NCBI GenBank assembly: GCA_963565915.1
Contig: OY751490.1
Span: 2,604,001 to 2,668,000 of the forward strand
Origin: Entoloma clypeatum
Taxonomy: Eukaryota > Basidiomycota > Agaricomycetes > Agaricales > Entolomataceae
Direction of reading: 5' to 3'
Length of the DNA stretch: 64,000 nucleotides
Part shown: positions 55,307 through 63,278 of the stretch, one piece after another
How positions within the stretch are numbered: position 1 is the first letter of the stretch
Layout: every line of letters begins with the position of its first letter
The notes under the pieces: model-generated
Told to the model about the DNA's origin: nothing
Seen by the model: only the letters and a program-made list of their open reading frames with translations
Database searches by the model: none
Made by a program: the position numbers and the translations under genes

Positions 55307-57223
<1,917 letters not shown>

Positions 57224-57266: not shown

Positions 57267-57938
57267 TCAGACCACCCTCTTTTCACAGCGTGTTTCGGCA
57301 TGAACCCCCTCACAATTCCGATCGCAATAAGGCATGGCACAACGACGACACTTATACGTTCCCCAGTAGCCACACACAGAGCAAAGTAATCGCGACGGAT
57401 AGGTCGAGGCCGCCGTGAGAGCTGTGAGATACGTTGGGACGGATGTAGAAAGAGCTGCAATGCCCTGAAGGACATAAACAAATGGACAGCTTCAGTGGGG
57501 ATGAATCATCCATACAGATTCATCGAGGAGAGTAGCCAGGTTCTTGCGATAAAGTAACGCGGTCCGGACGTTCATGGTTGACTTTTTCTTCTTCCCTGCC
57601 GCGGAGTTGCCCAATATAACGAGATTGCGTTTATCAGAGATGGTTTGTCGTGCGCGTCCTTTTGCAAAATTTCCTCCTTCGTTATCGTCGTCAGCCAAGA
57701 AGGTAGGTTCAGCGTAGTTGGAGCGCTATGATTGATGGGTGTCATGTTCACGACGGGCTGATAACCTTACCTCGAGCTCGTCAAGATGTCGCTTGGTGCG
57801 TTTGGCGATGACTTCGGGGGTGATGCCGATTGCAGTGACATTATGCGCCTGCCGAACATCTGGGATGGTTTATGTCGGTCGGGATTAACTGGGAGGGAGA
57901 ATCAACATACACTGCTCCCTTGTTTTCTTGGGCGGCAT
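57267..57938 (-). CDS. VPS71: HIT zinc-finger protein Vps71/ZNHIT1 (SWR1 complex)
   Basis: Subunit of the SWR1 remodeller that deposits H2A.Z. Exons 57938-57911, 57859-57771, 57725-57516 and 57464-57267 give 174 residues. N-terminal MPPKKTREQYVRQAHNVTAI, then HLDELERSNYAEPTFLADDD, a basic stretch (SAAGKKKKSTMNVRTALLYR) and KNLATLLDESGI. The C-terminal zf-HIT is complete: CSVCGYWGTYKCRRC, then YCDRNCEGVHAETRC, seven cysteines and a histidine in the treble-clef pattern. All introns are GT-AG. It is divergent from the fusion gene across 120 bases. Confidence 0.93.
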
Positions 57939-58058
57939 CCTGATCGGCCGAGATGAAGAAAGACGGATATGAGGCCTGAGCACGCCATCGGGCGGTCACA
58001 AGCGGTCATCCGTGAATCATTTTGTCACTTACCTCAATCCTTCGTGACATCTCCCGAG
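57939..58058. promoter_or_regulatory. 120-bp bidirectional promoter, VPS71 and the fusion gene
   Basis: Measured between the chosen ATGs. An in-frame ATG at 57969 could start the fusion gene instead, leaving only 30 bases; the downstream ATG is preferred for that reason. Confidence 0.45.
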
Positions 58059-61000
58059 ATGGCACCCTCCATCGACCCAAACCCGTCCACAAAATTGCCC
58101 GTTCATGACTTGCCAACTCCTGACCCCGAGTCGCCGCCGCGGCCCAGGAAACCGTATCGGTTCTCGACCCTTTGTGCGACGGTCGAGAACCCAGACATGA
58201 AGGACCAGTACGGCAGTAGTTCCGTACCTATCTATCAAACAGCCACCTTCAAGGGCGTAGGTAACCAATATGATTATTCGAGGAGTGGTAATCCTACCCG
58301 GAGCCACCTTGGTACGTGACTCACTTTATACTTTGAAGGCAATTTGACAAAATCGTCGGGGCTAGAACACCACATCGCCAAGATCTCCTCGGCAGACCAT
58401 GCCTTTGTCGTTGCATCTGGGATGGCCGCTCTTGACATAATACTGCGAATGCTGAAGCCTGGGGATGAGGTAATTGCAGGTGACGACCTCTATGGTGGGA
58501 CGAATCGCCTCCTCAGCTACATCCGTACGCATGTCGGAGTAACAATTCACCATGTCGATACAACCGATCCCGAAAGTCTGGATGCATATGTACACCCAAC
58601 GAAGACTGTCATGGTTCTTCTCGAATCCCCGACCAACCCATTACTCAAGATCGTCGACCTTGCGACAATCAGTAAAAATGTCAAGGAGCGCGCACCGAAC
58701 GCGATTATTGTCGTCGACAATACCATGATGAGTCCTTATCTTCAACGGCCGCTTGAACACGGCGCCGACATCGTATACGATAGCGCTACCAAGTATCTGA
58801 GTGGGCACCACGATCTTATGGCTGGAGTCATAGTCTGCAATCGAGATGACCTGGCCAAGGTAGACCATATCGTAGATCTTTATTCGTTTTCTCTCAAATG
58901 TTTTTTTGTTTGAGCAGCACATGGCATTCACGATCAATTCTGTTGGAAATGCTCTTGCGCCCGTCGATGCCTTCCTTCTCCTCCGCGGGATCAAAACACT
59001 TGCTCTGCGCATGGACCGTCAGCAAACCACTGCCAGTGCTGTTGCTGAATACCTTGACGCATTGGGGTTTCATGTGAACTATCCGGGGCTTGTCGACCAT
59101 CCAGGACGCGACATCCACGAGAGAATTGCCGACGGAAATGGCGCAGTATTGAGTTTTGAAACCGGAAACAAGGCTCTGAGTGAACGAATAGTTGCTGCTA
59201 CAAGGCTATGGGGCATTAGTGTAAGTTTTGGATGTGTAAACAGTCTAATCAGCATGCCTTGCGTGATGTCGTGCGTCTCTTCTTTCTCTTCACATACGAG
59301 GTGGCTCAGAATCCCTTTTGGCATTTAATCATAGACATGCCTCCATTGACGCTGCTACTCGAGCAGCTCGCGGTCTTCCCGAAGACCTAATTCGTTTGTG
59401 CGTTGGCATCGAAGCTGTCCAGGACCTCTTAGATGACCTTGAACGTGCCCTTATTGATGCGGGAGCTATCGAATTCAACACAGCCCGAAACAGATATGCA
59501 CGACTCTTTGCCTCGGAGACTGGCGAAGCAATCACCAGGGCTGTCGAGCACTTGGCGTTGAACAGCTCACAGAGAGGGGGGGTAGAATGGTTTGTGAGCG
59601 CTCCCGGAAAAGTCATTTTGTTCGGCGAGCATGCTGTTGTGCATGGCGTGGTGAGTTCCTTTTTTCCGTCTTGAGCTCGACTCGCGAACACAAGTTCCAT
59701 CGCCCCTAACTCGAATGTTCTTGCACACGACTATCCGGCCTTTCTCTTGTCATGATGCTCACAACTACCTTCAGACCGCGATTGCAGCGTCAGTCGATCT
59801 GCGGTGTTATGGGCTTACGACGCCTCGACAGGATGAAAAAGTGTCTGTGCATTTCCATGACATCGATAACTTCTATCATGAATGGGATATAGAAGGGTTA
59901 CCTTGGGATTTGGTGACTCTTGTGGCTGCGGGCGACAACCAACCGGAGGCTCTTGATCAGAATCTAATCAGTGCTATCGTTGAAGGGCCATTGGCTGGAA
60001 TCGACCTGAGCAAGAAGCAGGCTCGTGCTGCAGCTTTGGCATTTCTTTACTTGTATCTGACCCTTGTGCATGGTAGTGAGAGGTAAGCATCACGAACACC
60101 GCGGACCAGCGCGTTTAACATTCTTACCTCAGGTTGTCATTCGATTTTTCTGCTCGATCAACTCTTCCAGTTGGAGCGGGCCTCGGTTCTTCGGCGTCGT
60201 TTTCTGCCTGCGCAGCTGCGGCATTGCTTCTACTCTCAGATAAAATTATCCTTCCAGAACCCACGGCTCCTACACCGGCTCCTACAGGCCACGTCCATGT
60301 TTCACATCAAGACCGGCGAGCCATTCCTCCAAGAATAGCAGAAGAAGTAAATCGATGGGCATTCATAGCAGAGAAGATTCTGCATGGTAATCCAAGCGGC
60401 GTAGATAACAGCGTTTCGGTCTTTGGTGGTGCCTTGGCCTACACTCGTGCTGGATTCCAAAGGAAAGATGGCATGGAACCAATTGAAGGGCAAGTTCCTG
60501 CCGGTCCTTGCTCCTTAGATCTTGTGCCTGACGGATCACATACCTCCTAGATTCAAGTCCTTAGGATTCCTTTTGACCAACTCGAAGAAACCACGGGACA
60601 CGAAGAAGCTCGTCGCGGGAGTTGGACAAAAAAAGACGGATGTAAGTCTTTCCTCATGGGTTTCCATGGAAGGTTGTTTAATAAGGGGCCGATTATACAA
60701 TCTTTCTTCTTCCAGGAACCCGAACTGGTTGAGGGTATCCTGGAGGCCATCCAGAGCATCACCGACGAAGCTAGGAGAGCTCTGGCGGATCCGGAGTTGC
60801 CTCGCGAGACACTGTTATCTGTCTTGTCGGTCAGCTATCACCTTACGATCGATCTGGACGGAGATTCTCACCACATCGACTTCTCACAGGCGCTTATCCG
60901 TGAAAATCATGGACACCTCGTCACCTTAGGTGTCTCGCATCCCTCCTTAGAGGCAATCAAGAGCACGACCGCCGCTGAACCCTATCAATTGAGTACGAAA

Positions 61001-61447
61001 CTGACTGGTGCCGGCGGGGGAGGGTGTGCGGTGACCCTAGTACCGGACGGTACGCATCCTGCTCTCCAGTCGAGAGGTAATCGATCTCACATCCGACGTC
61101 CATTTCTAGATTTTGAAGCACACCTCCTTCAAAATCTGATCGCTGAATTGATCCGCGACGACTTCCAGCCATATCTCACATCTCTAGGAGGGAGTGGACT
61201 CGGTATCTTGTCGCCATATACACATCATCGTAACCGCAAATCTGCTGTGCCTCGTCCAACTCGTTCCGCGGGGCAAACAACACCCCCTGAGACACCAGTG
61301 CCCAGTGCTCATCAGGAGCTCTCTTTGGATGCCAGGGATGGTAATGGCATCGTTGAATCCGATGACCTCCGAATGCCGCTCGAAACGAGTTCAATTGCGG
61401 AACTGCCTGCCTGGGCAGACAGTCTTGGACGTTGGTTGTACGTTTGA
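58059..61447 (+). CDS. Fused cystathionine beta-lyase - mevalonate kinase
   Basis: Exons 58059-58311, 58366-58859, 58918-59270, 59335-59650, 59775-60082, 60133-60489, 60551-60641 and 60716-61447 give 967 residues. Residues 1 to about 445 are a full PLP-dependent cystathionine beta-lyase (cystathionine to homocysteine): YDYSRSGNPTRSHLEHHIAK, VVASGMAALD, GDDLYGGTNRL, VVDNTMMSPYLQRP, the PLP lysine in SATKYLSGHHD (Lys227) and SLISMPCVMSHAS. Residues 454-967 are a full mevalonate kinase (GHMP family): VSAPGKVILFGEHAVVHGV, LPVGAGLGSSASFSA, GNPSGVDNSVSVFGG and KLTGAGGGGCAVTLV. The junction is inside exon 4, with no stop and no methionine before the kinase. A run of seven G (59576-59582) sits there; six would give a TAG. 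The intron at 60490 is GC-AG (GG|GCAAGT). The 33 bases 61079-61111 are kept as coding. Confidence 0.85.
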
Positions 61448-62028: not shown

Positions 62029-63278
62029 TCACTCAAAGTCCGAATCAGAATCGAGCTCCTCGGGACCTTCGCGTGCTCGAAGGGTCACAAGGCGAGTGTT
62101 TTTGATTTCAATGTACATGTTCCCGAAGTATCGTTGGGTTTCAAAGCTCCAGCTAGGAAGAGCATGAGTAAAAAGAAACTTTTTCCAAAAAGGAAACGTA
62201 CTCAAGGTTGCCCTTAATCCAAAAGCCTAACCCCCGGATATAGCGTGCTACCTCGGAATCAACTGAGGGACCCCAAGAGGGAAGACGAGATTGCGCTGAG
62301 ATATAGCGGCTTGTGAGCTCTTCACAATGGGCGCCGACGTAGTCAGCTGCTTCCTGGAGGGTCATATTCCTCTCCATCATCAGGACGGTGACGACGTTGT
62401 TGCCTGCAATCCCTCTGCTTTGTTCCATGTCATAAGAATACACATCCTTCGCAGAGGTGGATTCAGGATCGGCTGCAAGCATGGAAAACGACGTCTACGA
62501 CTTACATTGGCCCAACAGACTAGGTCCACAGCTGACCAATAAATTTCTTGGAACGCCGAGTTTTCAAAAACCTCCTCCGGTAGATTCGCCCCAATGCAAT
62601 ATTCGATTAGGTCAAAACAGAGGCGAACGGCGCTATTTTCACGGCGCAAAGCAAGGAACGGTTCTACCGCCAGAATCTGGCCAGCCTCGCGCAGTTGAGC
62701 CTCTTTCACAACGGCGGCGCAGTATGTTTCCCAATGCTTCAGGAAGCGTGCCGTGGCCCTCGGACGAGCACGGCGGAGAAAGCGCGCGCGAAACCTAATA
62801 CGCCATCATGAGCCTTTCACGCCAGTAGCAAGCAATCGATGCTCACTGTTTAGTCATTTGGGAAAAGGCTGAATGATCGTCATGGTTGGAATCCTGCATG
62901 GCATTCAGAAATATATTCCCAGTCGAGAGGGCATCTTTCCCATCCTGTTCATCGCTGAGCTCATCAAAGACAAAGAGAACGTTGACCTGCAGGCAGCGCG
63001 TGAGATAAAGTGAGATAGGAAGGTTAAAGATATAGACTTACGAAATCACAAGCGGTCCTGAACTCTTCGTCCCCAGCATAGGCATACACGTGAGAGACGA
63101 GTAGCTCGTTACAGCCTAATATGAAGAAAGCGCGTTTTCGATCTGTGAAAACATCGTAGCTATTGATCCATGCTCGAGCTTCCGCAACTACTCTTTCATA
63201 GTGGGGGTTGGTCCCGCCCTCCAATGGGCACGAGGACAAAAGGTCAGGAAGCATGAATGAAATGGGTCTCGGGATCAT
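62029..63278 (-). CDS. Sesquiterpene synthase (class I terpene cyclase)
   Basis: Cyclises farnesyl diphosphate to a sesquiterpene. Exons 63278-63042, 62986-62847, 62794-62506, 62446-62202 and 62152-62029 give 344 residues, normal for the Cop-type fungal family. Seen: [40 protein letters not shown], the metal-binding aspartate motif [13 protein letters not shown] (Asp87, DxxxD form), [20 protein letters not shown], the NSE triad [10 protein letters not shown] (Asn222, Ser226, Glu230), [20 protein letters not shown] with the C-terminal RY pair. All introns are GT-AG. Start choice: [12 protein letters not shown] fits family N-termini; an in-frame ATG at 63368 would add 30 hydrophobic-rich residues. 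The product cannot be predicted. Confidence 0.93.

What the first reader, a model, noticed from the sequence alone, without database searches (positions are those of the whole stretch)
58059..61447. Cystathionine beta-lyase and mevalonate kinase in one open frame
Two complete enzymes from unrelated pathways (methionine and isoprenoid biosynthesis) share one continuous frame in exon 4. Between the last conserved lyase segment (LPEDLIRLCVGIE) and the first kinase motif (VSAPGKVILFG) there are about 60 residues with no stop, and the kinase half has no in-frame ATG nor room for a promoter. Either this is a true bifunctional protein, which I do not know to be described, or translation of the kinase depends on something unusual such as cleavage or re-initiation.
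Basis: partly seen in the sequence, partly recalled or inferred. Interest (0 to 1): 0.9.

Follow-up and report, generated by a model that had tools for sequence, protein, structure and literature searches.

The report
Known mushroom lyase-kinase fusion enzyme
This gene really does join a methionine-making enzyme and a sterol-pathway enzyme into one protein, but the same fusion occurs widely in mushrooms, smuts and related fungi and was described in 2012, so it is a genuine but already known feature.

Summary
A 10-exon gene at 58059-61447 is predicted to encode one 927-residue, 100 kDa protein: a cystathionine beta-lyase, a 43-residue linker, and a mevalonate kinase. The junction lies inside exon 4, without a stop or an in-frame ATG.

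It is not chance or a frame error: 120 of 120 listed homologues run from lyase tail to kinase head in one chain, with conserved sequence on both sides of the suspect G-run. No second mevalonate kinase was found in this genome. The fusion is present in Agaricomycotina, Ustilaginomycotina and Pucciniomycotina. The kinase tree separates fused from stand-alone kinases by one supported branch, so a single ancient origin is the simplest reading.

It is already in print: Liu et al. 2012 named it metC-MVK, a Magnaporthe paper of the same year found it independently, and two later mushroom papers report it.

Best explanation: an ordinary bifunctional enzyme from one mRNA. A hidden kinase start or re-initiation is unlikely; cleavage is untested. 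My nine paper searches turned up no enzyme assay of the fused protein, so why it has been kept is open.

The parts
58059..61447 (+). Whole fused gene, cystathionine beta-lyase / mevalonate kinase, 10 predicted exons, 2784-base coding sequence, 927 residues
   Evidence: Gene model by splice junctions and comparison with relatives; Pfam and NCBIfam
58059..58311 (+). Exon 1, lyase, start codon at 58059
   Evidence: GT-AG junction; same start as the Lyophyllum shimeji protein P0002
58366..58859 (+). Exon 2, lyase, includes PLP-lysine motif SATKYLSG (residue 224 on)
   Evidence: the motif label is recalled
58918..59270 (+). Exon 3, lyase
59335..59650 (+). Exon 4, lyase tail, linker and kinase head in one frame
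59465..59593 (+). Linker, residues 411-453, from the end of the TIGR01329 match to the residue before VSAPGK
59576..59582 (+).
   Evidence: flanking residues conserved in frame
59594..59650 (+). Kinase head VSAPGKVILFGEHAVVHGV
59775..60082 (+). Exon 5, kinase
60133..60489 (+). Exon 6, kinase, includes PVGAGLGSSAS (residue 587 on) and HGNPSGVDNSVS (residue 659 on); followed by a GC-AG intron
60551..60641 (+). Exon 7, kinase
60716..60829 (+). Exon 8, kinase
60830..60889 (+). In-frame 60-base GT-AG intron, read through in my first model
   Evidence: Absent from P0002
60890..61049 (+). Exon 9, kinase, includes KLTGAGGGGCAV (residue 799 on)
61110..61447 (+). Exon 10, kinase end and C-terminal tail ending LPAWADSLGRWLYV, stop codon

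Best explanation
The gene is the basidiomycete metC-MVK fusion. One promoter makes one mRNA, which is spliced and translated from the ATG at 58059 into a single chain. The N-terminal half is a PLP-dependent cystathionine beta-lyase (cystathionine to homocysteine). The C-terminal half is a GHMP-family mevalonate kinase (mevalonate to 5-phosphomevalonate). The linker only joins them. Shown here: one conserved reading frame, both families at full length, catalytic motifs intact, no second mevalonate kinase found in the genome, presence across three subphyla, trees that agree with one origin. Inferred: both halves are active, the chain is not cut, and the fusion arose once in the basidiomycete ancestor.
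For: Pfam PF01053 at residues 44-406 and GHMP kinase domains; TIGR01329 eukaryotic cystathionine beta-lyase 538 bits against a cut-off of 487.5; kinase half aligned end to end with solved mevalonate kinases 1kvk and 2r3v. 120 of 120 listed homologues are continuous lyase tail to kinase head, 118 of them 800 residues or longer (the list is the best 120 of 769). Named fused proteins outside Agaricomycetes: 22 Ustilaginomycotina, 18 Pucciniomycotina and 3 Dacrymycetes rows that I picked, 43 of 43 continuous and with a PLP-lysine motif. Kinase tree of 59 chosen rows: 44 fused against 15 stand-alone is one branch, support 100/98. Lyase tree: the three subphyla each need one change, in 100% of 200 bootstrap trees. 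The window differs at 4 of 392 strongly conserved columns, median for the set 2, so it is under selection along both halves. All 6 kinase matches in the 60 Mb genome lie in this gene. Eight of the 120 hits sit on contigs only 180-433 bases longer than their coding sequence, which fits spliced cDNA. A Pleurocybella mycelial unigene carries the fusion (passages).
Against: No cDNA, proteomic or enzyme data for this organism were available. The type of the short contigs (cDNA or not) is not stated by the tool. Stand-alone lyases of other fungi were not sampled, so a single origin is tested only for the kinase half, with hand-picked rows. The lyase tree's only outgroup sits on a branch of length 10 and its root means nothing. 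The predicted structure is shallow and mediocre (61 sequences, mean pLDDT 73.6, pTM 0.54) and its lyase half superposes poorly (TM 0.50, rmsd 14.9 to 1ibj) although its kinase half fits (TM 0.81 to 1kvk).
Confidence: 0.92

Rival explanations
1. One precursor is made and then cut in the linker, giving separate lyase and kinase proteins.
For: The linker is the least conserved stretch, 40 to 59 residues in the Agaricomycete set, and in the Ustilaginomycotina rows the distance from VGIE to the kinase head runs from 55 to 153 residues, as expected of a flexible or cuttable stretch. The model has low confidence at 429-445.
Against: A flexible spacer explains the same facts. In Agaricomycetes the linker is not free: most rows keep a pattern like ISRAVEKLA and EWFVSAPGK. 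I did not scan for protease sites.
Confidence: 0.05
2. The kinase is also made on its own by re-initiation or an internal start.
For: 27 of 121 aligned rows have a Met somewhere in the linker, and 12 of 22 Ustilaginomycotina, 4 of 18 Pucciniomycotina and 3 of 3 Dacrymycetes rows do too. Polycistronic transcripts are reported in up to 8% of transcribed genes of some Agaricomycetes (PMC4503453, abstract and outline only).
Against: The window has no Met between the lyase tail and the kinase head, its frame has no stop that would call for re-initiation, and the linker Mets of the 27 rows do not line up at one place.
Confidence: 0.02
3. Two separate genes have been joined by sequencing errors at the G-run.
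For: Removing one G would bring a TAG into the lyase frame (59582 region, my reading), and homopolymers are error-prone.
Against: The residues before and after the run match the relatives in the frame as read, including independently sequenced genomes. A separate kinase would need a second error as well, since no ATG is in the kinase frame of exon 4.
Confidence: 0.01

Closest known systems
metC-MVK fusion of basidiomycetes (Liu et al. 2012, PLoS One 7:e36146, PMC3342255; section on triterpene synthesis read in full, other passages seen)
   Same: N-terminal cystathionine beta-lyase, C-terminal mevalonate kinase, mean length about 886 residues, only mevalonate kinase homologue in the genomes analysed
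   Different: Nothing of kind. This copy is 927 residues and in an organism near Lyophyllum shimeji. They reported 12 basidiomycetes with Laccaria bicolor lacking it; here it is also seen in many named smuts and red yeasts
Basidiomycete STR3 orthologues with a C-terminal mevalonate kinase region (PLoS One 2012 7:e47392, PMC3468542; passages and one methods section read)
   Same: Same fusion, found independently among 81 fungal genomes; no stand-alone mevalonate kinase in the basidiomycetes; stand-alone only in ascomycetes, where the two genes are not clustered
   Different: They name Postia placenta as an exception; a 909-residue Postia placenta protein with both domains is listed, so that exception was probably a gene model
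Stand-alone fungal mevalonate kinase (ERG12 type)
   Same: Same kinase family and motifs, 39-44% identity for most listed stand-alone rows
   Different: Begins with its own Met a few to about a hundred residues before the SAPGK motif and has no lyase
Arabidopsis cystathionine beta-lyase 1ibj
   Same: Lyase half matches residues 35-405, E 1.1e-105
   Different: Single enzyme, no kinase

Membership tests
metC-MVK fusion | N-terminal cystathionine beta-lyase | tested here: met
   TIGR01329 538.1 bits, cut-off 487.5; PF01053 E 1.9e-129
metC-MVK fusion | C-terminal mevalonate kinase | tested here: met
   Best solved relatives are mevalonate kinases 1kvk and 2r3v, E about 1e-60; PF00288 and PF08544 over cut-off
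metC-MVK fusion | Both in one uninterrupted reading frame of about 900 residues | tested here: met
   927 residues; 120 of 120 listed homologues continuous
metC-MVK fusion | No other mevalonate kinase homologue in the genome | tested here: met
   All 6 matches of the kinase query lie in this gene; the query then still held a 20-residue read-through of intron 60830-60889
metC-MVK fusion | Only gene best matching cystathionine beta-lyase in the genome | tested here: inconclusive
   4 of 8 lyase matches lie in this gene. The next best, C10, scores 289 bits with TIGR01329, below the cut-off, and best with cystathionine gamma-synthase. The matches on C6 and C13 were not examined
metC-MVK fusion | Host is a basidiomycete | tested here: met
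   By gene tree only: sister to Lyophyllum shimeji in both halves (lineage)
metC-MVK fusion | 16-residue conserved insertion in the kinase of some members | not tested
   The insertion's letters are in a figure that is not held
metC-MVK fusion | Both enzyme activities | not testable with these tools
   Motifs intact; no assay possible
Bicistronic gene pair | Stop codon between the two coding regions and a separate start for the second | tested here: not met
   No stop and no in-frame ATG in the junction

The most novel reading that the evidence does not exclude
The fusion is a deliberate coupling rather than a frozen accident: related fused proteins have kept the two halves together in all three subphyla sampled. 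It could tie sterol precursor supply to methionine and S-adenosylmethionine supply, which ergosterol synthesis also needs, or, because solved lyases of this family are tetramers and mevalonate kinases dimers (both recalled), build larger assemblies in which each half affects the other. None of this is shown.
Probability: 0.15. Interest if true: 0.55.

Novelty: already known. Interest (0 to 1): 0.22.

Why it matters
It settles a striking observation as real and already reported. The remaining open point is worth a note: two essential biosynthetic enzymes from unrelated pathways have apparently stayed fused since the basidiomycete ancestor, and my paper searches found no test of whether both activities work in one chain or affect each other. 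For annotation, pathway tools that label these proteins only as cystathionine beta-lyase hide the mevalonate kinase of these fungi.

Tried and rejected
Frame error at the G-run: rejected, because conserved sequence on both sides is in the frame as read. Separate kinase with a hidden start: rejected for the window, which has no Met in the linker. Stand-alone basidiomycete kinase: looked for with a kinase-only search (best 120 of 6835 shown). By my reading of that list 13 rows bear a basidiomycete name; 8 hold lyase sequence or the lyase Pfam domain (P0115, P0124, P0128, P0131, P0139, P0154, P0156, P0174) and 5 lack the kinase start motif and look truncated (P0136 Inonotus, P0141, P0167, P0177 Rhizoctonia, P0228 Phaffia), so none is an intact stand-alone kinase, but Tremellomycetes and rusts are not decided. 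Of 54 proteins with a kinase head and no lyase motif found upstream by my script, 9 are cut pieces that still show lyase tail or fusion linker, and of the other 45, 24 bear species names, none of them basidiomycete; 21 bear none.

Structure: AlphaFold gave a usable kinase half and a poor lyase half; it adds little. The viral fold search gave only generic PLP-enzyme matches and was not needed. Rfam and tRNA scans of the window found nothing. Paper searches: nine; two searches returned no paper. PMC11590231 was searched for the terms and has none; PMC9810662 and PMC4393869 were seen as passages only and do not mention the lyase. A C-terminal W-x(3-8)-W tail was present in 195 of 200 full fusions, but the pattern is loose and some stand-alone kinases end in similar W-rich tails, so I make no claim from it.

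Rows dropped: the lyase tree left out P0128 and P0131, whose lyase halves are short models. Tree rows were picked by hand from the listed hits. Two of the 120 listed homologues, P0017 and P0115, lack my PLP-lysine pattern.

Full report
The predicted gene starts at 58059 and ends at 61447. Splice junctions were placed by hand and then checked against the Lyophyllum shimeji protein P0002. That comparison showed that 60 in-frame bases, 60830-60889, are a GT-AG intron that my first model had read through. The corrected model has 10 exons and 927 residues, 99,989 Da. Exon 4, 59335-59650, contains the end of the lyase, the linker and the head of the kinase in one frame. Between LPEDLIRLCVGIE and VSAPGK are 60 residues without Met or stop. 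These splice sites are predictions; no cDNA of this organism was available.

The N-terminal half exceeds the cut-off of TIGR01329, eukaryotic cystathionine beta-lyase (538.1 against 487.5 bits), and matches PF01053 with E 1.9e-129. The C-terminal half matches GHMP kinase domains, and its best solved relatives are mevalonate kinases 1kvk and 2r3v along the whole length. The motifs SATKYLSG, SAPGKVILFGEH, PVGAGLGSSAS, HGNPSGVDNSVS and KLTGAGGGGCAV are intact; that these are the PLP-lysine and kinase catalytic motifs is recalled. Among 392 columns at least 97% conserved in the homologues, the window differs at 4, against a median of 2 and a maximum of 17 for the 121 rows, so neither half looks decayed.

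The fusion is not an accident of this assembly. The homologue search gave 769 hits, of which the best 120 are listed. In 120 of 120 the lyase tail is followed by the kinase head in the same chain, and 118 are 800 residues or longer. The alignment shows conserved residues before the G-run (the ISRAVEKLA region) and after it (EWFVSAPGKVILFGEHAVVHGV), in the frame as read in the window. A one-base error in the G-run would break one or the other. The linker is 40 to 59 residues in this set. 27 of 121 rows have a Met somewhere in it, at varying places, and the window has none.

It is old. A search with divergent members found named fusions in Ustilaginomycotina (Sporisorium, Ustilago, Tilletia, Malassezia, Exobasidium and others), Pucciniomycotina (Rhodotorula, Sporobolomyces, Microbotryum and others) and Dacrymycetes (lineages of four checked). 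Of those I picked 22, 18 and 3 rows, and all 43 run from lyase tail to kinase head. In these groups the linker varies more, and Mets in it are commoner: 12 of 22, 4 of 18 and 3 of 3. In the kinase tree of 59 picked rows, 44 fused and 15 stand-alone kinases lie on two sides of one branch with support 100/98; Ustilaginomycotina, Pucciniomycotina and Agaricomycotina are each supported groups among the fused. The lyase halves give the same three groups, each with one change in 100% of 200 bootstrap trees. The simplest reading is one fusion before the three subphyla parted. Limits: rows were hand-picked, stand-alone lyases were not sampled, the lyase outgroup was far too distant, and Tremellomycetes and rusts were not decided (the Phaffia row P0228 lacks the kinase head).

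It appears to be the only mevalonate kinase here. All 6 matches of the kinase query in the 60 Mb genome lie in this gene. For the lyase, 4 of 8 matches lie in this gene; the next best, on C10, fits cystathionine gamma-synthase models better and fails the beta-lyase cut-off; matches on C6 and C13 were not examined. In the kinase-only search I saw no intact stand-alone kinase with a basidiomycete name. The named stand-alone kinases belong to ascomycetes and early fungi and begin with their own Met shortly before SAPGK in many cases, or after a longer N-terminal extension.

Transcript evidence is indirect but points the same way. Eight of the 120 hits sit on contigs only 180 to 433 bases longer than their coding sequence, and three more on contigs 888 to 1007 bases longer. 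Since this gene is rich in introns, such contigs are most likely spliced cDNA; the tool does not say so. The Pleurocybella paper reports the fusion in a mycelial unigene (passages).

How it most likely works: one mRNA, one chain, two enzymes joined by a spacer. Lyase: cystathionine to homocysteine. Kinase: mevalonate to phosphomevalonate. That both are active is inferred from motifs, from conservation and from the lack of another kinase. Cleavage after translation is possible and untested. Re-initiation or sequencing error is unlikely.

It is in print. Liu et al. 2012 (PMC3342255; section on triterpenes read, other passages) named it metC-MVK, found it in 12 basidiomycetes and not outside them, and placed its origin in the basidiomycete ancestor. 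PMC3468542 (2012; passages, one section) found the same among 81 fungal genomes, with the kinase never alone in basidiomycetes and the two genes unclustered in ascomycetes. PMC4129116 and PMC3720577 report further cases (passages). The 2012 papers each name one exception, Laccaria bicolor and Postia placenta. One search lists a fused 909-residue Postia protein; Laccaria I could not check. Nine paper searches in an open-licence library found no enzyme assay of the fused protein; papers outside that library were not searched.

A structure prediction on P0002 with 61 sequences had mean pLDDT 73.6 and pTM 0.54. Its kinase half fits 1kvk (TM 0.81 by the target) and its lyase half fits 1ibj poorly (TM 0.50, rmsd 14.9) although it is found. 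It says nothing firm about how the halves are placed.

Verdict: confirmed, real, conserved and already known. The interest left is functional: whether the two halves influence each other after such a long time together.

Noticed in passing
57270-58050, - strand: A divergent neighbour with a HIT zinc finger (PF04438; Vps71/ZNHIT1-like by recall). Its candidate start codon has its A at 58050, only 8 bases from the fusion gene's ATG at 58059, so the two genes would have overlapping leaders or promoters inside each other. The neighbour's first exon is my guess.
   Followed up: partly
62153-62805, - strand: Pieces of a terpene synthase (PF19086, E 2.3e-26 and 2.7e-9) lie about 700 bases downstream, convergent with the gene that holds the mevalonate kinase.
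   Followed up: partly
56555-57223, - strand: HMGL-like domain (PF00682, E 8.7e-22); homocitrate synthase-like by recall.
   Followed up: no
60490-60550, + strand: Predicted intron with a GC donor instead of GT in the fusion gene.
   Followed up: no
61110-61447, + strand: The C-terminal tail ending in W...W is shared by 195 of 200 full fusions under a loose pattern; stand-alone kinases often also end in W-rich tails, so its meaning is unclear.
   Followed up: partly
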